A stretch of 46,696 nucleotides of DNA from Veillonellaceae bacterium DNF00626 (GCA_001553355.1 KQ960873.1:1-46696); one strand, 5' to 3'; shown: positions 36,124 to 46,696, counted from the stretch's first letter. Notes: generated by a model not told the origin, from the sequence alone. Made by a program: numbers and translations.

Positions 36124-36148
36124 AAGACTCCCTTGGTGGAGTTTTTTT
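36124..36148 (+). terminator. Terminator after the DtxR-family gene
   Basis: Stem AAGACTCC/GGAGTTTT (one wobble) with a 6-nt loop running into seven T. Confidence 0.7.
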
Positions 36149-36171
36149 ATGATTTTTTGGATGAGGGAATA

Positions 36172-37107
36172 ATGAATTTCATTGAAAAACGATTGCAAGA
36201 AGTGCCTTTTCTTATTTTAGATGGGGCTGTTTCTACGGAAATAGAGCGGCGCGGTGTGTCCGTGTCGGACAGTCTTTGGGGCGCGTCGGCACTTGAGGAT
36301 CATCCGGGTGTTGTGGAGGCGGTGCATGAGTCTTATTATGAGGCCGGTGCGGATATAGTCACGTCTGATAGTTATCAAGCAACGGTACAGGGATTGACGG
36401 AAAAGGGATATACGGAAGAGGAAAGTAAGGAAATATTAAGAACGTCAGTTGCGTTGGTGAAAAGGGCGCAGAGGAAATATAAGGAGAAAAGTCAAGATAA
36501 ACGACCTTTGTTTGTGGCGGCGTCGGTGGGGCCTTATGGGGCTTATTTGGGAAATGGCGGAGAGTATCGTGGTAATTACGGTAAATCTGTGGAAGAGTTG
36601 AAAGCTTTTCATCGTTTGCGGTTTTCTTTATTGGCAGAAGCCGGGGCAGATGTTTTGGCTTGTGAAACGATTCCGTCTTTTAATGAGGTGAAAGCACTTG
36701 TTTCACTTCTTCATGATTGGCCGTGTGCAATGGCGTGGTTTTCGTTTTCGTCTGTGGATGGAAAACACATGGCTGAAGGGGTAGATATAGGGGAAGCGGT
36801 ACGTTATCTGGATAGGGAGAAGCAAGTCGTTGCTATTGGCGTGAATTGTATCGATCCTTCCTATGGTGAAGGGTTGATAAAACAAATTAAAAAGAGTACA
36901 GAAAAACCTATTATTATTTATGCCAATAGCGGAGAAGTGTGGGATCCGAAGTGTGGTGAGTGGATCGGTCATGCTGTATCTATCGGTAGGTATGCGGAGA
37001 AATGGATATCTGTCGGGGCAAAGATTATCGGCGGTTGTTGTCGAACTACACCGGAAGAATTGAAAGAATTGAAAGAAATAAGAAATCGTATGATGTGTAA
37101 AAGGTAG
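36172..37107 (+). CDS. mmuM: Homocysteine S-methyltransferase, MmuM-like
   Basis: 311 aa from ATG 36172; the longer frame from 36133 reads through the upstream terminator and is rejected. Family motifs: ILDGAVSTEIERRG near the N-terminus, and zinc ligands Cys in AIGVNCIDP and the Cys pair in IIGGCCRTTPEEL. It would methylate homocysteine using S-methylmethionine or SAM. The coding strand is strongly G/T-rich. Confidence 0.92.
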   Translation: MNFIEKRLQEVPFLILDGAVSTEIERRGVSVSDSLWGASALEDHPGVVEAVHESYYEAGADIVTSDSYQATVQGLTEKGYTEEESKEILRTSVALVKRAQRKYKEKSQDKRPLFVAASVGPYGAYLGNGGEYRGNYGKSVEELKAFHRLRFSLLAEAGADVLACETIPSFNEVKALVSLLHDWPCAMAWFSFSSVDGKHMAEGVDIGEAVRYLDREKQVVAIGVNCIDPSYGEGLIKQIKKSTEKPIIIYANSGEVWDPKCGEWIGHAVSIGRYAEKWISVGAKIIGGCCRTTPEELKELKEIRNRMMCKR

Positions 37108-37257: not shown

Positions 37258-37286
37258 TTGACGGCAAGCTTTTTGAATATTACACT
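37258..37286 (+). promoter_or_regulatory. Promoter of the BtuF-like gene
   Basis: TTGACG (37258-37263), 17-bp spacer, TACACT (37281-37286). The leader is only about 20 nt, leaving no room for a riboswitch after it. Confidence 0.65.
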
Positions 37287-37314
37287 ATATGGTAAATAAA
37301 TAAAAAAAGATAGG

Positions 37315-38316
37315 ATGAGGACAGTGGTTATTTCTTTGCGACGTAGTTTTATATGGATGGTAAGCGTAGTTATTTTCGCTTGCCTTTTTTTATCCGGTTG
37401 CAGCATGAAAAAGGTGGAAACTACGACAGCTGAATCGTATAAGGTGACTGATGCTATCGGCGAGGTAGTCACTATTCCTCATAAACCGATGCGCATCATG
37501 GGTACGTCTCCGGCGATAGATACGATGCTCTTAGGAGTGGTGGAACCTTCTCGTTTGGTGCTTTGCTATGATTCCGATAGAGATCCGGTGATGTCTTATA
37601 TTTCCGAAGACGTGAAAGATATTCCGGTGACTGTTCCTTTTCGCGGTATATCCATGGAAATAATAACGCGCATGAAGCCGGATTTGATTGTGGCGTCTAC
37701 TTACGTGAAACCGAAAGAATTGGAATTGTGGAAGAGTATGGGATACCCGGTTATAGTCATCAGGGGCCCTGTATCAGTCAGCCAAGTCAAGGATGCGGTG
37801 ACACTTATCGCGGCTGCCGTAGGAGAAAATGACCGAGGGGAGCGAGTTATCGGCGAAATGAATCGTCAATTAAAAGAAATAGACGATACTATTTCGAAAT
37901 TGGATCGCCCGAAACCATCGGTCTTTTTAGTGTCACAAATGACTAAGTACGGTGGCCCCGGTTCGATGTACCATGAACTTCTTACTCATGCTCATATACG
38001 AAATGCTATCGAAGAAGCCGGAGCGGTTAATGGTGAACTCTTAGCACAAGAACTTTTGGTTAAAGCCGATCCCGATTTTCTTATCGTGTCGACTGATCGT
38101 GCCGGTGATAGTACCGGTGCCGGTGCATTTCGGGATAAGTTTCTTAGCAATCCTGCCATTCAAAAAATGCGTGCATCGCAGCATATTATTGCTTTAGATG
38201 ATAAATATATTTATGCGTCATCACAAAATTGCGTATTTGCCATAAAAGCGTTAGCCAATGCAGTTTATGGTCCCCTTTTCGACTTATCCGATGAAAAACA
38301 AATCAAAGGCTTTTAA
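37315..38316 (+). CDS. BtuF/FepB-like solute-binding lipoprotein
   Basis: 333 aa. A signal sequence with lipobox FLSGC (Cys29) precedes a helical-backbone class III binding protein: VTDAIGEVVTIPHKPMRIMG, then MKPDLIVASTYVKPKELELW, typical of vitamin B12/siderophore/heme binding proteins. No permease or ATPase gene adjoins, so it must use a transporter encoded elsewhere. The next gene (TIM barrel) starts 23 nt downstream. With the arsAB pair further down, a corrinoid substrate is the best guess. Confidence 0.82.
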   Translation: MRTVVISLRRSFIWMVSVVIFACLFLSGCSMKKVETTTAESYKVTDAIGEVVTIPHKPMRIMGTSPAIDTMLLGVVEPSRLVLCYDSDRDPVMSYISEDVKDIPVTVPFRGISMEIITRMKPDLIVASTYVKPKELELWKSMGYPVIVIRGPVSVSQVKDAVTLIAAAVGENDRGERVIGEMNRQLKEIDDTISKLDRPKPSVFLVSQMTKYGGPGSMYHELLTHAHIRNAIEEAGAVNGELLAQELLVKADPDFLIVSTDRAGDSTGAGAFRDKFLSNPAIQKMRASQHIIALDDKYIYASSQNCVFAIKALANAVYGPLFDLSDEKQIKGF

Positions 38317-38339
38317 AAGAACCGGTGAAGGAGGATATC

Positions 38340-39269
38340 TTGAAACAAAGTGTCAGTTATTATGTCATGAAAAATGATACGGAAAATGAATTAATAGCCA
38401 AAATTCACGCATTAGGGCTTGATGGCATTGAAAACCTGATTTACGGTTATGAACCGGCGGAAAATATTTGTGCCAAAGCCACTGTTGGAGCACATCTGAA
38501 ATATTGGCCCACATGGATGGATTTTTATTTAGGAAAAGAAGACATTTATCGTAAAGATTATCCCACCGACAAAGATTTGATTGATTATTACGGGGCTACC
38601 ACGCCTGATGGATGGATAGAACATATAAAACTCAATATCAAAGCAGCATTGGCAGAAAAACCGGAATATATAGTTTGGCATGTGGCAGATTGTCGAGTAG
38701 AAGAAACTTGGACACGACAATTTCGCTATACATCTGAAGAAGTATTAGAAAAAACAGCAGAAATTTATAGTCAAGTGGCATCGATAGTGCCTGATGACGT
38801 TTACGTTCTTTTTGAAAATATCTTTTGGCCCGGCCTTTGTGATTTGACACCGCATGAAGTAGACTATTTATTTTCTCGACTCCCCTATAAAAACGTGGGA
38901 ATCATGCTGGACACCGGACATGTGATGAATATGGATTGGACGATAAAAACGGAACAAGACGGTGCCGATCGAATTTGCCGGATAGTGAAAGAATTAGGAG
39001 ATATGAAAAATCTTATCAAGGGGATACATTTATCTTGTTCCTTTTCCGGTGAATATCAAAGAAATTTAGAAAGGAATCCGCCGAAAAATCCGGATATGGG
39101 AGTCATACTAAATCACGTGACATCTATTGATGAGCATAAACCTTTTAAGACTGAAGTGACGGCACAAATTGTAGACACCATAGAGCCGGAATATCTTACG
39201 CATGAACTTTTCACCAACGGACATTCGTTACCTGTCGAGGAGTTAAAGGTGCAGATGAAATATTTGTAA
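38340..39269 (+). CDS. AP-endonuclease-2-like TIM barrel, candidate cobamide-remodelling CbiR
   Basis: 309 aa from TTG 38340, 5 nt after AAGGAGG (38328-38334). It belongs to the xylose-isomerase-like TIM barrel superfamily. Probable metal ligands along the strands: His in VGAHLKYWPTW, His in YIVWHVADC, Glu in VLFENIFWPG, Asp/His in MLDTGHVMN, His in IKGIHLSC, Glu in FKTEV. CbiR, which removes the nucleotide loop from cobamides, is of this superfamily. Location just after a BtuF-like gene and near arsAB supports CbiR, but generic sugar isomerase is not excluded. Confidence 0.62.
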   Translation: MKQSVSYYVMKNDTENELIAKIHALGLDGIENLIYGYEPAENICAKATVGAHLKYWPTWMDFYLGKEDIYRKDYPTDKDLIDYYGATTPDGWIEHIKLNIKAALAEKPEYIVWHVADCRVEETWTRQFRYTSEEVLEKTAEIYSQVASIVPDDVYVLFENIFWPGLCDLTPHEVDYLFSRLPYKNVGIMLDTGHVMNMDWTIKTEQDGADRICRIVKELGDMKNLIKGIHLSCSFSGEYQRNLERNPPKNPDMGVILNHVTSIDEHKPFKTEVTAQIVDTIEPEYLTHELFTNGHSLPVEELKVQMKYL

Positions 39270-39314
39270 TTTCGGAGGAAAGACCAGCTAATAATTCTAT
39301 CAAAGGAGATTGAC

Positions 39315-42300
39315 ATGAATCATGAGGAGGATGTATTAAAAGACGGTATTTACGAAAAAGTTATTTCCACTCATTTGGCTGAAAAGTTATTAGAAGCTTT
39401 AAAAAATGATGAAATATGGGTAGCGCGGGAAGATGTAGATCCACAAGAGGCATCGAGTTATTTGTCTCGCTATTTGGCACGTCTAATAAAACTTTGTTTG
39501 TGTGATATAGCGGATAAAAATGAAACCACGGTAGAGGAATTACTTTCGAATGAAGTGGGGTTAGTTAATGAAATAGTAGCTCTTTTGCGTCATAGATTGC
39601 CTTATATGGGAGATGGGCAAGAGGTAGTGACGGATAAATTTCTTCTTCGCTCTGTTCAGCATAAGATTAATTCGATCAAACCTACCCTATACGTAGCACC
39701 GGAAACCTCTTTAACAAAAAGTTTCCTTTTTACTGGTGGTATGCATGATATTTCTTTAGTGTCTGAATTGATAAGGGAAATAAAATCGGCCGATCGAATT
39801 GATTTATTAGTATCTTTTATTAAACGAAGTGGATTATTATCTATTTTGCCTTATTTGCGAGAATTTACGAATAAAGGTGGTAAATTAAGAGTATTAACGA
39901 CAACGTATATGGGCGCTACTGATCCGGTGGCTGTTACAACATTGGCAGAATTGCCACATACAGAAGTTCGTATATCTTATCAAGTGAAATCTACTCGGCT
40001 TCATGCGAAATCTTATATTTTTCATCGTGATACTGGTTATTCTACAGCTTATATTGGTTCGTCTAACTTATCTCATGCTGCTATTACAGATGGTTTGGAA
40101 TGGAATATGAAGATGACGGAATCAGATACGCCTTCAGTGATGGAAAAAGTGAAAGCGACTTTTGAGACGTATTGGCATTCTGAAGAATTTCAACCATTTA
40201 CAATGGCAGATGAAGAAAAATTAAAGCAAGCGATTCATTATGAAAAATATGGAAAAAATGATTTAACTGCATCGTCAGTATATACTTTTGCTGTTAAACC
40301 TTATTATTATCAAGAAGCTATATTAGATCATTTAGAAGTAGAACGAAAAGGAAATAATCGTTGGAAGAATTTAATTGTAGCCGCTACGGGAACAGGAAAA
40401 ACAGCGATTTCGGCTTTTGACTATGCACGTTTCGCTAAAAGTCGGCTTCCTGAACCCACTCGGCTTCTTTTTATTGCACATAGAAAAGAAATATTAGAAC
40501 AGAGCCGATCTTGTTTTCGACAAGTATTGCAAGAACCAAATTTTGGGGAATTATGTGTTGGAGAATATAAACCATCTTCAACAGAACATCTCTTTATGTC
40601 TATACAGTCTTTTCATAGTCAGGCTTATTGGAAAAATATGAATCCAAGTTTTTATGACATGATTATCGTTGATGAATTTCATCATGCGGCTGCTCGTTCT
40701 TATCAAAAACTATTAACCTATTTTCGACCTAAAATATTATTAGGTCTGACAGCTACACCAGAACGAATGGATAATCAATCCATTTTAACTTATTTTGATG
40801 GTTATATGAGCGCTGAGATCAGATTATCTGATGCCATAGAAAAAAGATTACTTTGTCCGTTTCATTATTTTGGCGTTACTGATGCGGTAGATTTATCTCA
40901 AGTACATTGGCGTGGTGGCGATTATGTTACGGCAGATTTAGAGAAATTATACGTTTTTTCTGATACGGCTAAGCAAAGAGCACGTCAGGTTATAGATGCG
41001 TTGCAACATTATGGTCTTGATTTTCAAGAAATCAAAGCATTAGGATTTTGCGTTTCACAGAAACATGCAGCATATATGGCAGAATATATGAATAGTCAAG
41101 GAATATCATCAGTAGCCATAGATGCTCATTCTACGCCAGATGAAAGGCGAAAGGCTAAGCAGAATTTAGAAACAGGGAAAGTTAAGATTATATTTGCTGT
41201 GGATATTTTTAACGAAGGTGTGGATATACCTGCGGTTAATACGGTATTATTCTTACGCCCAACGAATAGTATTACGGTATTTATTCAACAATTGGGAAGA
41301 GGACTTCGCTTAGCTGAAGGGAAAGATTTTTTGACAGTGCTTGATTTCGTAGCACAATCTAATAAGAAATATAATTTTTTTGATCGGTATCGAGCTTTGA
41401 CCGGGAAACCAGATATTTCTGTGAAAAATGAAATAGAAAATTATTTTCCGCATGCACCTAAAGGTTGTTTTATCCAATTAGAAAAAATGGCTGCTTCCTA
41501 TATTTTAGAGAATATTCGAAAGCAAGTGGGGAAATATAAATATTATATAGAGCGATTGTATGAATTGTATGAAACTATGGGAAAGGTCGTACCTACGGCA
41601 GAAGAATTTTTTCAGGCGACGGGCATCGATCCTCTTGAGTTTTATAATGGGAAAAGAACATATACGAGGCTTTGTATAGATGCCAAAATTGTTGATCAAC
41701 CATTATCTGATGAGAGTGAAAAATTGATGCAGAAATTAGCGTATCGATTATTTTATATAGACTCTATTCCTTGGTTAAATTACATTATTAAGCTTTGGGA
41801 AAATCCGAAACTTTTAGACAAAGAGGGGACAATAGAGGAAATAAAATATCAAGATATGTGGAAATGGACATTACATGATAAAAATGAAGAAACGGGAGAA
41901 ATGTATTCTTTCAGGAAAAGTATTCAGCATTTGAAAGATGTGAAGGGGGAAATTTGTTCTCTTCTTTACTATCAAATGAATCATTTAGATTTGCAAACAA
42001 AGAAGATTGAGTTGCCATATCCTTCTGTCATGGAAGTATATGGTCGGTATACAAGGGATCAAATATTTTCCGCATTGGGATTTTCTAAACCGGAAAGTAT
42101 AAAGGAAGGCGTAAAATATTTACACACTAAAAATAGTGATATTGTTACGAAAGATACAGATGTATTTCTTGTCACTTTGAATAAGTCTGAAAAAGAATTT
42201 TCAAATACGACATTATATCAAGATTATTCCATTAATAAATATCTTTTTCATTGGCAATCGCAGCGTCTAACATCTGATACATCACCAACGGGAATGCGTT

Positions 42301-42512
42301 ATAGAGAACAGAACAAAAAAGGGAATATAGTACTTTTGTTTGTTCGACAAAGTAAAAAAGATAATTATGGGCATTCATTGCCTTATACGTTTTTAGGGCC
42401 GGTACATTTTGTCAAATATGAAGGCTCACAACCTATGACGATTATTTATCGTTTGGAAAATCCTATTCCTGCAAAGTATATTTCTATGACGGATACGGCT
42501 GGTATGATTTGA
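39315..42512 (+). CDS. PLD-helicase-DUF3427 protein, SauUSI-like type IV restriction enzyme
   Basis: 1065 aa. N-terminal phospholipase-D-type nuclease with H230-x-K232 followed by IGSSNLSHAAITDG. An SF2 helicase follows: Walker A ATGTGKT (357-363), DEFH box 453-456, QQLGRGLR. The long C-terminal DUF3427-type region ends TFLGPVHFVKYEGSQPM and probably recognises the target. The order matches SauUSI, an ATP-dependent endonuclease cutting cytosine-methylated DNA. It is more AT-rich, with different codon choice (CCT/CCA, TTA), than flanking genes, suggesting transfer. AAAGGAG precedes the ATG. Confidence 0.85.
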   Translation: MNHEEDVLKDGIYEKVISTHLAEKLLEALKNDEIWVAREDVDPQEASSYLSRYLARLIKLCLCDIADKNETTVEELLSNEVGLVNEIVALLRHRLPYMGDGQEVVTDKFLLRSVQHKINSIKPTLYVAPETSLTKSFLFTGGMHDISLVSELIREIKSADRIDLLVSFIKRSGLLSILPYLREFTNKGGKLRVLTTTYMGATDPVAVTTLAELPHTEVRISYQVKSTRLHAKSYIFHRDTGYSTAYIGSSNLSHAAITDGLEWNMKMTESDTPSVMEKVKATFETYWHSEEFQPFTMADEEKLKQAIHYEKYGKNDLTASSVYTFAVKPYYYQEAILDHLEVERKGNNRWKNLIVAATGTGKTAISAFDYARFAKSRLPEPTRLLFIAHRKEILEQSRSCFRQVLQEPNFGELCVGEYKPSSTEHLFMSIQSFHSQAYWKNMNPSFYDMIIVDEFHHAAARSYQKLLTYFRPKILLGLTATPERMDNQSILTYFDGYMSAEIRLSDAIEKRLLCPFHYFGVTDAVDLSQVHWRGGDYVTADLEKLYVFSDTAKQRARQVIDALQHYGLDFQEIKALGFCVSQKHAAYMAEYMNSQGISSVAIDAHSTPDERRKAKQNLETGKVKIIFAVDIFNEGVDIPAVNTVLFLRPTNSITVFIQQLGRGLRLAEGKDFLTVLDFVAQSNKKYNFFDRYRALTGKPDISVKNEIENYFPHAPKGCFIQLEKMAASYILENIRKQVGKYKYYIERLYELYETMGKVVPTAEEFFQATGIDPLEFYNGKRTYTRLCIDAKIVDQPLSDESEKLMQKLAYRLFYIDSIPWLNYIIKLWENPKLLDKEGTIEEIKYQDMWKWTLHDKNEETGEMYSFRKSIQHLKDVKGEICSLLYYQMNHLDLQTKKIELPYPSVMEVYGRYTRDQIFSALGFSKPESIKEGVKYLHTKNSDIVTKDTDVFLVTLNKSEKEFSNTTLYQDYSINKYLFHWQSQRLTSDTSPTGMRYREQNKKGNIVLLFVRQSKKDNYGHSLPYTFLGPVHFVKYEGSQPMTIIYRLENPIPAKYISMTDTAGMI

Positions 42513-42552
42513 TAAAGTTTATTTCCGTAGTGGTATTACATATTTCAAAAGT

Positions 42553-42588
42553 AGAACGCATCGATTTACCTGATCGGCGTTCTTTTTT
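42553..42588 (+). terminator. Terminator after the restriction gene
   Basis: Stem AGAACGC-(AT)-CGAT / ATCG-GCGTTCT with loop TTACCTG, then T6. Confidence 0.85.
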
Positions 42589-42665
42589 GCGTGAAAAATA
42601 GAGTATGAGTTATCGTTTCAAGAGGGGGGAGTTTACAGAAAATACGAAAAATTTCTTAGTGCTTG

Positions 42666-42674
42666 TGTTATAAT
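42666..42674 (+). promoter_or_regulatory. Extended -10 promoter of arsAB
   Basis: TGTTATAAT (42666-42674), a perfect TATAAT with TGn; no clear -35. About 35 nt before the arsA start. No cobalamin riboswitch seen. Confidence 0.55.
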
Positions 42675-42709
42675 TGATATGAAAAAGTGCATGTATCGGG
42701 GGGATTATA

Positions 42710-43762
42710 TTGAGCTTATTAGAAAAAACGGTGGAAGCTATTCAGCCTATCCGGCGAGATGTGATGAGTGAGGCACAAAAGCGTTGGAATCGTTTGTATA
42801 TCGGCATGGGTGACTTGGGGCGTTTGGAAGATTTGGTGATTCAATATGCCGGGATTACCGGTGAAGTTGTACCGGAGATTCCTAAGTGTTGCATGGTGGT
42901 CGCTTGTGCGGATCATGGTGTGTATAAGCAGAAGGTGTCGGCGTATCCTCAATCGACGACGGTGGGAATGGCTCGGGCTTATGTGGAAATAAAAGGAGCA
43001 TCGGCGAATGCGGTGGCGCATTATTGCGATGCGGAGTTGGTTGCTGTGGATATGGGAATCAAGCATGATATGTCTGATGTGCCCGGTCTTTTGCAACGGA
43101 AAATCGCTTGGGGTACGAAAGATATTACGGAAGGACCGGCGATGACAAGAGATGAAGCTATCCGGTCTATCGAAGTGGGTATTGAAATAGCAGAGGAAAA
43201 AATAAAAGAGGGGTATAAAGTATTTACTGTAGGTGAAATGGGTATTTCCAATACGACAGCGTCAGCGTGCATGTTGGGCGCGTTTAATCATTGGAATGCG
43301 ATTGAGGTGACCGGTCGGGGGACGAATATTTCCGATGAACGGCTCAAGCATAAGATCGATGTGGTGCAAAAAGCTCTTGATGTGAATCAACCGGATCCGA
43401 ATGATGGCATTGATGTACTTTCCAAAGTCGGGGGATTTGAGTTTGGTTGTATGACCGGTGTCATGCTCGGGGCGGCGGCACATCATTGTCTCACGATTAT
43501 TGATGGATTTAATTCCACGGCATCGGCGTTTGTGGCGAAAACCATTAAACCTGAGGCTGTGCAATATTTGATGTCATCTCATTTGTCTTTAGAGCAAGCG
43601 CATCAAAAATCGCTTAAGGCGATGGGACTTTCGTCTTATATTGATTTAGATATCCGCTTGGGCGAAGCCACCGGCGCAGGGATTCAGAAAAAAATGCTTG
43701 ATATGGCACTGACCGTGTATCGGGAATGTGCGGATAAGGAAATAGAGGTGCATCATGAGTGA
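42710..43762 (+). CDS. arsA: CobT-family phosphoribosyltransferase, ArsA-like subunit
   Basis: 350 aa from TTG 42710 with CGGGGGGA upstream. It is a NaMN:base phosphoribosyltransferase: VACADHGVYKQKVSAYPQST, GEMGISNTTASACMLG, and the catalytic-region Glu in DIRLGEATGAG. It overlaps the next CobT-like gene by exactly 8 bp, as reported for S. ovata arsA/arsB, whose heterodimer activates phenol and p-cresol (and DMB) for cobamide lower ligands. 'ars' here means alpha-ribotide synthesis, not arsenic. Which subunit is A is inferred from order. Confidence 0.87.
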   Translation: MSLLEKTVEAIQPIRRDVMSEAQKRWNRLYIGMGDLGRLEDLVIQYAGITGEVVPEIPKCCMVVACADHGVYKQKVSAYPQSTTVGMARAYVEIKGASANAVAHYCDAELVAVDMGIKHDMSDVPGLLQRKIAWGTKDITEGPAMTRDEAIRSIEVGIEIAEEKIKEGYKVFTVGEMGISNTTASACMLGAFNHWNAIEVTGRGTNISDERLKHKIDVVQKALDVNQPDPNDGIDVLSKVGGFEFGCMTGVMLGAAAHHCLTIIDGFNSTASAFVAKTIKPEAVQYLMSSHLSLEQAHQKSLKAMGLSSYIDLDIRLGEATGAGIQKKMLDMALTVYRECADKEIEVHHE

Positions 43763-44780
43763 TATTCAGCCATTGCAAAAAGACGTGATGGAGCGTAGTC
43801 GTCTTTATGTAGATAATTTGATTAAGCCTCTGCATTCGTTAGGGCAGTTGGAAGAAATAGCTATTCGCTTAGCCGGTATTACCGGAGAAGTGAAACCGGG
43901 GGCATTAAAGAAAGCTTTGGTCGTTATAGCAGGCGATACAGCCGTTGATGGTGAAAATATCACCGGAGGAAAGAAGAGTTTGCAGGAGTTAACGGCCGTA
44001 GCTAAGGGTTTGGCACCTGTCAATGCGGCGGCGAGAGATTTAGGTGTGCCGGTGTATGTAGCTGATGCAGGATTGCAATTAGATACGGCACATATCGAGG
44101 GCGTATTGGTGAAAAAAGTGGTGCACGGGACTCATCGAGGACAGCCGGCAATGACGGAAGATGCGGCAAAAGAGGCTATTTCTTTAGGAATGTCTATGGC
44201 ACATAGTTTGGCGTTGGACGGTATTCAAGTCGTGGGATTAGGAAATATCGGTGAACGTAGTATGCTTTCTGCTTTGGCTGTCACGACAGCGGTTCTGAAA
44301 GAAGATTTGGCAGGAAGTGCGAAAGATAAGGGGCTATCTTTTGAGTGGCAAGAGGTAGGAAATATAAAAGATGAACCTATACAAGTATTGAGTCGTGTGG
44401 GTTCAGCGGAAATAGCTGCGCTTTTCGGATTTGTTGTACAGGCGGCGAAAGAAAGAATGGCTATTGTCTTTGATAATGCAGTGACCGGAGCGGCAGTATT
44501 GGCAGCTGTTACCGTTTATCCGGAATGTAAGGATTATATATTTCCATCAGTGTACTATGATGAACCGGTACATCAGATGCAAATGCAAAAATTAGGAATG
44601 AAAGCATTCCTCCATTATGATTTTACTTTAGGAGAAGGTTTTGGGTCTGCTATGGGATTATCCGTTATTGATGCGTCGTTATCCATGATCAATGTCATGA
44701 AAACATTTGGCGAAGGAGGTGTCGACGTAGCAGAGGACGGGCCCGGCAAGAATCGTCAAAGAGAGGATGTGCGTCTATGA
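43755..44780 (+). CDS. arsB: CobT-family paralogue, ArsB-like subunit
   Basis: 341 aa, a diverged homologue of the preceding protein: the same start (IQPLQKDVMERSR), LVVIAGDTAVDGENITGG in place of the CobT ADHGV motif, GLGNIGERSMLSALA, and FTLGEGFGSAMGLSV at the C-terminal end. AGAGGTG near the end of arsA serves as ribosome binding site. Its stop overlaps larC-like by 4 bp. Pairing of two CobT homologues implies a heterodimer for phenolic lower-ligand activation. Confidence 0.85.
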   Translation: MSDIQPLQKDVMERSRLYVDNLIKPLHSLGQLEEIAIRLAGITGEVKPGALKKALVVIAGDTAVDGENITGGKKSLQELTAVAKGLAPVNAAARDLGVPVYVADAGLQLDTAHIEGVLVKKVVHGTHRGQPAMTEDAAKEAISLGMSMAHSLALDGIQVVGLGNIGERSMLSALAVTTAVLKEDLAGSAKDKGLSFEWQEVGNIKDEPIQVLSRVGSAEIAALFGFVVQAAKERMAIVFDNAVTGAAVLAAVTVYPECKDYIFPSVYYDEPVHQMQMQKLGMKAFLHYDFTLGEGFGSAMGLSVIDASLSMINVMKTFGEGGVDVAEDGPGKNRQREDVRL

Positions 44781-45553
44781 AAGCTTTATTTGTGAAATGT
44801 CACGGGAAATTAACGACGGATATGCTCATCGGCGGATTGATTGATATGGGTGTGCCGGTAGAATATGTGAAAATGAAATTGCAAGAAGCCGAATTAGATT
44901 TTCAATTCATAGAAAAAAATCGACCGTCAGATAAAATTCCGGCTCGCTATTTCCATGTCGTGGATAAAGCGAATAAGCCGTTACTTTTGCGGCAAGGTGA
45001 TTTATTCCGCATTTGGAGACACATTTGTGATACGGCAGCATCGGAATGGGAACAGATCGGATGGAAAGTATTTTCCATATTAACCGCCGGTGCGTCAGAT
45101 GCTTTGGACGAAATACCGGCCAATATTGTTGGACTTCGGCGTTGTAATGTACGGGAAGAAGATGTGGTATCTCTGTACTGTTTCCTGGCATGTTTAGACT
45201 ATTTAGGCGTAGAAAGCCTTTTTACCGTGCCATTTTCTCTTAACCCCGGTGAGGATGAAGCCGGTAAGACGACTTATAAAATACTCATTCGAGCTAAAAG
45301 CTCATCGGGAGTGCCTCTTTCGCCGGGAGATATAGATCCCTTCGCTGCTGCGGTATTGGAAGGGCTGTCAGCAGAATTTATCGACATGGATGGGCGTTTC
45401 ATTTCAGAAAAAACTACTTATGGCGCATATAATCCGGACGAGATAACAGGAGATAATACAGTGGCTTTGCATTTAGGCTATTTTAATGACAAAAATAGTA
45501 CCATATTCAGCAGGCAACTCAAGGTATTCGGCGTCAATGTGGGAGAATCGTAA
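44777..45553 (+). CDS. LarC-like (DUF111) protein, N-terminal half only
   Basis: 258 aa. The N-terminus (DMLIGGLIDMGVPVEYVKMKL) matches LarC/DUF111, the CTP-dependent nickel-insertion protein of the pincer cofactor. The usual HxHEVGAVDxIVD motif is changed to GASDALDEIPANIVG, and the C-terminal LarC2 half is missing. It overlaps arsB by 4 bp, so it is co-translated with the lower-ligand enzymes, not with larB/larE. Its function here may differ from nickel insertion; unknown. Confidence 0.7.
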   Translation: MKALFVKCHGKLTTDMLIGGLIDMGVPVEYVKMKLQEAELDFQFIEKNRPSDKIPARYFHVVDKANKPLLLRQGDLFRIWRHICDTAASEWEQIGWKVFSILTAGASDALDEIPANIVGLRRCNVREEDVVSLYCFLACLDYLGVESLFTVPFSLNPGEDEAGKTTYKILIRAKSSSGVPLSPGDIDPFAAAVLEGLSAEFIDMDGRFISEKTTYGAYNPDEITGDNTVALHLGYFNDKNSTIFSRQLKVFGVNVGES

Positions 45554-45700
45554 GGACATAATGAAAGGAAATAGAAAATATTCATAGCCTTTGTCACAAA
45601 CATATATTGTTGGAACTATGGCAAAATGGATAGATTTTATCTTAATAAAATTGACTTTTTGCTATATAGGGTAATTGTCTTGCTTTTTATGTTTTTACTT
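45554..45700 (+). other. Spacer between the larC-like gene and the repeat array
   Basis: AT-rich sequence with no convincing gene or terminator. The last ~40 bases already resemble the end of a repeat unit (TGCTTTTTATGTTTTTA). The T-tailed hairpin in the first repeat (45804-45827) may end arsAB transcription. Confidence 0.5.
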
Positions 45701-46696
45701 ACTTTGAGCATGCTGACGGATAGAGCAGGTTGTTACAACGCACGTGAGAAAAAGCTCATTGTACGCCAGCTTACCTCTACCGTCAATTCCTACGGAATTG
45801 CCCACCTTCTCCGTGTGCGGAGAAGGTCTACGCTTTTAACGATATTGTTATATATATAAATACGATTCTTCGGGGATTTAAATCACTATAAAAGTTTTAC
45901 AACGTTTATAGTGATACAATATATACTTTCACTGTTCAGATATAAGCTGTGATATCTATAATGATTTTCCGGGGATTCCTGATGACTACAACGGTTTTAC
46001 AACATCTGAGATTGCACAAATGGTCCACTTTCTCCGCGCACGGGGAAAGTCCCGGCGAAGCCGGGGATAGGGGTAAGCTTGAGTAGAACGAGTACTTCAA
46101 ACTCGACTGAGAATAGATAATACGTTTATGGCTCATTTGTGTTGTAACGGTTTAGTGCTATCGTTTTTTATGTTTTTATTCACTTTTAGCATGTTTATGG
46201 ATAAAGCAGGTTGTTACAACGCACGTGAGAAAAAGCTCATTGTACGCCAGCTTACCTCTACCGTCAATTCCTACGGAATTGCCCACCTTCTCCGTGTGCG
46301 GAGAAGGTCAGCGCTTTTTTGATGTTCTCAAATGTATGAATACGATTCTTCGGGGATTGTAAATGACTATAATGGTTTTACAACGTTTATAGTGATACAA
46401 TATATACTTTCACTGTTCAGATATAAGCTTGTGATATTTATAATGATTTTCCGGGGATTCCTGATGACTGCAACGGTTTTACAACATTTAAAATTGCACA
46501 AATTATTCACTTTCTCCGCGCACGGGGAAAGTACCGGCGCAGCCAGGGATAGGGGTAAGCTTGAGTAGACCGGGTACTTCAAACTCGAATGAAAATAGAT
46601 AACACGTTTATGGCTCATTTGCGTTCTGCCGGTTCAGTGCTACTGTTTTAGTTACTTTGAGTATGCTGACGGATAGAGCAGGTTGTTACAACGCAC
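45701..46696 (+). repeat. Tandem array of a ~475-bp structured repeat
   Basis: Units start at 45701 (481 bp), 46182 (472 bp) and 46654 (cut by the window end). A 105-nt core is identical between units (45724-45828 and 46205-46309). Each unit holds hairpins CAATTCC/GGAATTG and ACCTTCTCCG-TGTG-CGGAGAAGGT, an internal ~99-bp duplication starting GGGGATT (45872 and 45971), hairpin ACTTTCTCCG-CGCA-CGGGGAAAGT, CCCGGC-GAA-GCCGGG, and a TTGAGTA...TACTTCAA segment. Short ORFs (45626-45859, 46128-46322) cross the core but are not supported as proteins. Confidence 0.92.

What the first reader, a model, noticed from the sequence alone, without database searches (positions are those of the whole stretch)
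37258..45553. Putative corrinoid salvage and phenolic-cobamide remodelling locus
BtuF-like binding protein, CbiR-like TIM barrel (would cut off the old lower ligand), and the ArsA/ArsB pair (would activate a new base such as phenol or p-cresol) lie together, followed by a LarC-like gene. This makes a full import-strip-replace route for a gut-type bacterium without de novo corrin genes here. The link of binding protein, remodelling hydrolase and phenolic ligand enzymes in one locus may be undescribed.
Basis: partly seen in the sequence, partly recalled or inferred. Interest (0 to 1): 0.8.

Follow-up and report, generated by a model that had tools for sequence, protein, structure and literature searches.

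The report
Undescribed enzyme family in B12 salvage
A gut bacterium of the Dialister group carries, beside a vitamin-B12-type binding protein, a barrel-shaped hydrolase-like protein of a widespread but apparently unnamed family that keeps company with B12 uptake, B12 switches and the B12-trimming enzyme CbiZ, so it probably takes apart scavenged B12 relatives; the phenolic-B12 genes nearby are already known and form a separate unit.

Summary
The genes are real, but the 'locus' is two units. Unit 1 (37258-39269): lipoprotein binding protein plus an AP-endonuclease-2 TIM barrel. Unit 2 (42710-45553): ArsA-ArsB-LarC-like, a triad kept across Veillonellales and not near the barrel gene in other Dialister genomes. 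ArsAB in Negativicutes, Dialister included, is published. The premise of no de novo corrin genes fails: the genome has CbiDETFGHJC-CbiK, CobUQSDC/CbiB, PduO, two CbiZ, MetH and mutases. The barrel is not CbiR by the curated model (cut-off 105 bits; no match at E<=10). It is one well-supported clade, mostly Negativicutes (238 database relatives). Of 76 loci read, it shares a co-directional run with a binding protein in 38, a TonB receptor in 32 and CbiZ in 20; 9 of 21 loci scanned hold a cobalamin riboswitch. Its metal-site residues match endonuclease IV's. Best reading: a cobamide nucleotide-loop hydrolase that works like CbiR, often with CbiZ. The corrinoid link is strong; the reaction is inferred; a link to phenolic ligands is weak.

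The parts
37258..37286 (+). promoter-like site (TTGACG-17-TACACT) before the binding-protein gene
   Evidence: consensus scan, 9 of 12 matches; 40 sites found against 32 expected, so weak
37315..38316 (+). periplasmic binding lipoprotein (PF01497); orphan here (no permease beside it)
   Evidence: 82.7 bits; lipobox LSGC; 37% identical at best to binding proteins in loci of barrel relatives
38325..39269 (+). AP-endonuclease-2-type TIM barrel (GTG start, 8 nt after the binding-protein gene); putative cobamide hydrolase of an unnamed family
39315..42512 (+). type IV methyl-directed restriction-enzyme-like gene (PLD + DEAD + DUF3427) between the two cobamide units; not part of the pathway
   Evidence: PADLOC mREase_IV 672 bits; Pfam ResIII, DUF3427, PLDc_2
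42553..42588 (+). terminator-like hairpin with T run, -13.0 kcal/mol
   Evidence: folded
42664..42674 (+). extended -10-like sequence TGTGTTATAAT upstream of ArsA
   Evidence: sequence
42710..43762 (+). ArsA, CobT-family phosphoribosyltransferase (TTG start)
   Evidence: PF02277 377 bits; best solved relative S. ovata ArsA 4hdk_A, 362 bits against 221 for the next
43755..44780 (+). ArsB
   Evidence: best solved relative S. ovata ArsB 4hdk_B, 207 bits against 117 for the next
44777..45553 (+). LarC N-domain-like protein, diverged (no FHEVG motif)
   Evidence: PF01969 29 bits; alignment A3; triad with ArsAB in relatives

Best explanation
The SBP-barrel pair is a corrinoid salvage module. The lipoprotein captures a corrinoid, which is imported by a FecCD-type permease (a candidate lies on another contig), and the cytoplasmic metal-dependent TIM barrel cuts the nucleotide loop, most likely at or next to its phosphodiester. 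The resulting cobinamide or cobinamide phosphate can be rebuilt by CobU/CobS, or trimmed further to cobyric acid by CbiZ and rebuilt by CbiB/CobD. ArsAB, a separate transcription unit, supplies the activated new lower ligand (phenol or p-cresol by homology) simply because it is the genome's only CobT-type enzyme. Shown here: gene identities, family-wide neighbourhood, riboswitches, predicted fold, conserved metal-type residues, presence of the late pathway and CbiZ. Inferred: the substrate, the bond cut, import specificity, and that remodelling takes place.
For: Barrel homologues (238 database relatives; 80 loci fetched) lie with corrinoid genes: in 76 loci the co-directional run holds a binding protein in 38, TonB receptor 32, ABC ATPase 28, FecCD 25, CbiZ 20, CobN 8 (CbiZ confirmed as PF01955, 200 bits). 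Cobalamin riboswitches are in 9 of 21 loci scanned. In G007, of the same family, the order is barrel-CbiZ-nitrilase, and the window's genome keeps such a CbiZ-nitrilase pair on another contig. Alignment: H57, H119, E164, D196, H199, H235, D269, H271, E294 are invariant or nearly so, the set and order of endonuclease IV's Zn ligands. Model pLDDT 96; endonuclease IV ranks first, Z 18.5. Genome: late pathway and PduO, de novo genes, MetH and two mutases, two CbiZ, ArsAB as the only CobT-type genes.
Against: No activity is known for any member. Sugar isomerases and epimerases score almost as high in structure (Z 17-17.8), and the profile is nearer to generic superfamily members (E 2e-7) than to CbiR (3e-5) or endonuclease IV (0.003), so fold and motif do not fix the reaction. 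Ten of 76 loci show no corrinoid or uptake gene, several of them on short contigs or in Clostridium. In the window itself the only corrinoid neighbours are the SBP and, across a restriction gene, ArsAB; no riboswitch was found.
Confidence: 0.55

Rival explanations
1. The barrel acts in corrinoid salvage but not as a nucleotide-loop phosphodiesterase: for example it processes the released alpha-ribazole phosphate or ribose part, or another bond of the loop, downstream of CbiZ.
For: 20 of 76 runs include CbiZ, which already opens cobamides; the superfamily contains many sugar-phosphate isomerases that score nearly as high.
Against: G032 carries the barrel in a TonB-receptor/transport locus but no CbiZ was found in that genome, so it does not depend on CbiZ; the residue set parallels endonuclease IV.
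Confidence: 0.25
2. The barrel is a divergent CbiR, i.e. the same enzyme beyond the reach of the curated model.
For: 25 of 60 members match the CbiR model weakly; AU test does not reject a joint clade (p 0.062).
Against: No match to NF041277 in this genome at E<=10; D269 is R in the five CbiR-model matches compared; the tree places the family on its own long branch; the profile is no closer to CbiR than to other superfamily members.
Confidence: 0.1
3. Ordinary sugar isomerase or other unrelated function that happens to sit by the binding protein; the SBP could be for siderophore or heme.
For: Pfam PF01261 only at threshold; SBP matches heme, siderophore and BtuF models all far below cut-offs.
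Against: Repeated linkage to CbiZ, BtuR, CbiK and cobalamin riboswitches in many genera.
Confidence: 0.1

Closest known systems
CbiR, cobamide remodelling phosphodiesterase (Mok et al. 2020, PMC7733943)
   Same: AP endonuclease 2 superfamily, H/D/E metal-type residues, genes beside cobamide genes
   Different: fails the curated CbiR model; separate long-branch clade; D269 retained where the CbiR-model matches have R; mostly Negativicutes, tied to CbiZ and TonB/BtuCDF-type loci
CbiZ, cobinamide amidohydrolase
   Same: corrinoid remodelling; shares a co-directional run with the barrel in 20 of 76 loci
   Different: unrelated protein; cuts an amide bond; two copies elsewhere in this genome
Endonuclease IV (Nfo)
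   Same: closest structures (Z 18.5), same nine-residue set and H-x-x-Y motif
   Different: sequence far below recognition for the window protein (12.7 bits against cut-off 129.65); neighbourhood is corrinoid, not DNA repair; several genomes carry both
ArsAB of Sporomusa ovata / Veillonella parvula
   Same: tandem CobT homologues, best PDB match chain by chain; nearly restricted to Negativicutes (PMC6461909), Dialister succinatiphilus already listed (PMC8123684)
   Different: nothing of note, except the LarC-like third gene

Membership tests
CbiR (NF041277) | score above curated cut-off (105 bits) | tested here: not met
   no match in the window's genome at E<=10; 25 of 60 family members match, best E 1.2e-4
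CbiR (NF041277) | AP endonuclease 2 fold with conserved H/D/E metal-type residues | tested here: met
CbiR (NF041277) | gene beside cobamide genes | tested here: met
   family-wide; in the window itself only via the SBP and, beyond a restriction gene, ArsAB
CbiR (NF041277) | one clade with CbiR | tested here: inconclusive
   separate in the tree, joint clade not rejected, p-AU 0.062; comparators were five Firmicutes matches of the CbiR model, two over its cut-off, none from Akkermansia
CbiR (NF041277) | hydrolyses cobamide to cobinamide phosphate and alpha-ribazole | not testable with these tools
   needs biochemistry
ArsAB | tandem CobT homologues, chains matching S. ovata ArsA and ArsB best | tested here: met
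ArsAB | activates phenol/p-cresol | not testable with these tools
   needs enzyme assay
BtuF | curated BtuF model cut-off (NF002894, 234 bits) | tested here: not met
   24.8 bits; PF01497 class met, ligand unknown
LarC | FHEVG motif and C-terminal LarC2 domain | tested here: not met
   motif absent in Dialister; only one, N-terminal, PF01969 match in the genome
Endonuclease IV | curated nfo cut-off (TIGR00587, 129.65 bits) | tested here: not met
   12.7 bits; no match in own genome at E<=0.001

The most novel reading that the evidence does not exclude
An undescribed family, independent of CbiR, of metal-dependent cobamide-cleaving enzymes in Negativicutes (and some Clostridium) that forms with CbiZ and a CN-hydrolase a multi-enzyme stripping line fed by dedicated TonB/SBP uptake under cobalamin riboswitch control.
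Probability: 0.45. Interest if true: 0.7.

Novelty: new variant of a known kind. Interest (0 to 1): 0.5.

Why it matters
Cobamide exchange shapes gut and rumen communities, and few remodelling enzymes are known (CbiZ, CbiR, V. cholerae CobS). A widespread family with corrinoid neighbours could explain how common gut and rumen Negativicutes (Dialister, Phascolarctobacterium, Selenomonas, Succiniclasticum) swap lower ligands, and it is directly testable by the E. coli assay used for CbiR.

Tried and rejected
One import-strip-replace operon: rejected (restriction gene, terminator-like hairpin; not conserved). Riboswitch in the window: none, also at lax threshold. Barrel as endonuclease IV: sequence far below cut-off. 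Strict link of barrel to phenolic ligands: the seven Clostridium-type genomes checked gave one CobT-type match each. LarC-like model search in PDB: no meaningful match. PHROGs and PDB sequence searches with the single barrel protein: nothing. Akkermansia CbiR itself was not at hand; supplements of the CbiR paper could not be read, so I cannot exclude that a few members are in its table. Papers searched: none found on this family with CbiZ, or on LarC with ArsAB.

Full report
What is there. The window ends at its contig's end (46,696 bases) in a 1.59-Mb, 64-contig genome whose congeners include Dialister succinatiphilus. Near the finding lie MmuM (36133-37107), a lipoprotein binding protein (37315-38316), a TIM barrel (38325-39269), a restriction-enzyme-like gene (39315-42512), ArsA, ArsB and a LarC-like gene (42710-45553). 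ArsA and ArsB each match the S. ovata chain of the same name best (362 and 207 bits).

Not one locus. The binding protein and barrel are 8 nt apart. The gene that follows scores 672 bits as a type IV methyl-directed restriction enzyme. Between it and ArsA stand a hairpin with a T run (42553-42588, -13.0 kcal/mol) and an extended -10-like sequence. ArsA, ArsB and the LarC-like gene overlap one another. In the other Dialister genomes read, that triad stands without the barrel, and the barrel stands elsewhere without it. The triad recurs in other Veillonellales families, there with a recognisable LarC N-domain while the LarC C-domain is encoded elsewhere.

Premise of no de novo corrin genes. The genome holds cbiD, E, T, F, G, H, J, C and K with a FecCD permease, ATPase and binding protein on contig C15 (CbiD by HMM; the others named by me from sequence and order), and CobU, CobQ, CbiB, CobS, PduX-like, CobD, CobC and PduO on C62 (CobS by HMM; the others named from sequence). 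It has two CbiZ, no CobT-type protein besides ArsAB, MetH and two methylmalonyl-CoA-mutase-like proteins. So remodelling would be an option for a likely producer, not the only route.

The barrel. Pfam places it at the threshold of PF01261. The curated CbiR model finds nothing in the genome even at E 10. A pattern scan of species genomes gave 238 relatives; the 80 fetched are mainly Negativicutes with some Clostridium and others. In 76 of those loci the barrel was called; its co-directional run contains SBP 38, TonB receptor 32, ATPase 28, FecCD 25, TonB 21, CbiZ 20, CobN 8. An immediate neighbour is SBP in 23, TonB receptor in 22 and CbiZ in 13. Ten loci, several on short contigs, show neither corrinoid nor uptake genes. 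Cobalamin riboswitches lie in 9 of 21 loci scanned. The 80 loci are the best matches to the window's family, so these counts describe that set and are not independent events; no random-gene control was run.

Ancestral grouping. In a genome of the same family the order is barrel-CbiZ-nitrilase; the window's genome keeps a like CbiZ-nitrilase pair on contig C5. The window's barrel seems to have been parted from it. This is inference from gene order.

Mechanism. Sixty members keep H57, H119, E164, D196, H199, H235, D269, H271 and E294 invariant or nearly so. Seven of them align with endonuclease IV's ligands directly; H57 and E294 correspond by motif and order (HxxY and a final E), not by that alignment; the ligand list of endonuclease IV is from my own knowledge. 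D-x-H also occurs in other superfamily members, so the set suggests metal chemistry but does not prove phosphodiester cleavage. The model is confident (pLDDT 96); endonuclease IV ranks first, sugar isomerases just behind. Against profiles of CbiR, Nfo and generic members hhalign gives E 3e-5, 0.003 and 2e-7 (small comparison sets). The tree gives the barrel family 100/100 support as one side of a branch, but joining it to CbiR is not rejected (p 0.062). So it plausibly works like CbiR but is not shown to be one.

Phenolic link. ArsAB is nearly restricted to Negativicutes and published for Dialister (PMC6461909, PMC8123684). All barrel-bearing genomes checked have CobT-type genes, in many Negativicutes in tandem, but the Clostridium-type ones show a single CobT-type match. 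The barrel is therefore not a phenolic-specific tool.

Verdict. Corrinoid function of the barrel family about 0.85-0.9; nucleotide-loop cleavage about 0.55; an independent family rather than divergent CbiR more likely than not. These are my judgements, not computed values.

Noticed in passing
window 39315-42512: Type IV methyl-directed restriction-enzyme-like gene (PADLOC 672 bits) sits between the two cobamide units, apparently as an insertion.
   Followed up: partly
window 44777-45553; L159, L160, L162, L164, L167: A LarC N-domain gene follows ArsAB across Veillonellales while LarC's C-domain is encoded elsewhere; in Dialister it has lost the FHEVG motif and no C-domain was found. Its role beside phenolyl-cobamide genes is unknown.
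   Followed up: partly
L027, L045, L057, L070, L079, L088: Barrel gene in operons with CobN-like chelatase, ChlI/ChlD-like subunits and a radical-SAM protein; possibly chelation or dechelation of the corrin.
   Followed up: no
L034, L059, L064, L065, L079, L085: Nitrogenase-like NifH and NifD/K-type genes beside the barrel, transporters and cobalamin riboswitches; role unexplained.
   Followed up: no
L024, L037, L042, L052, L076, L079; own genome L157: A carbon-nitrogen hydrolase (PF00795) recurs beside CbiZ and the barrel; possible corrin amide hydrolase.
   Followed up: partly
G001 (L165): A 1.3-Mb congener without detected CobS, CbiD, CbiZ or barrel keeps shortened ArsA/ArsB and the LarC-like gene.
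   Followed up: partly
window 45684-46696: About 481-bp direct repeat, two copies and the start of a third running off the contig end, with palindromic hairpins; seems non-coding.
   Followed up: partly
own genome: No endonuclease IV gene found, although most congeners have one.
   Followed up: no
L020 (G028): Barrel homologue interrupted by stop codons next to a TonB receptor and FecCD permease.
   Followed up: no
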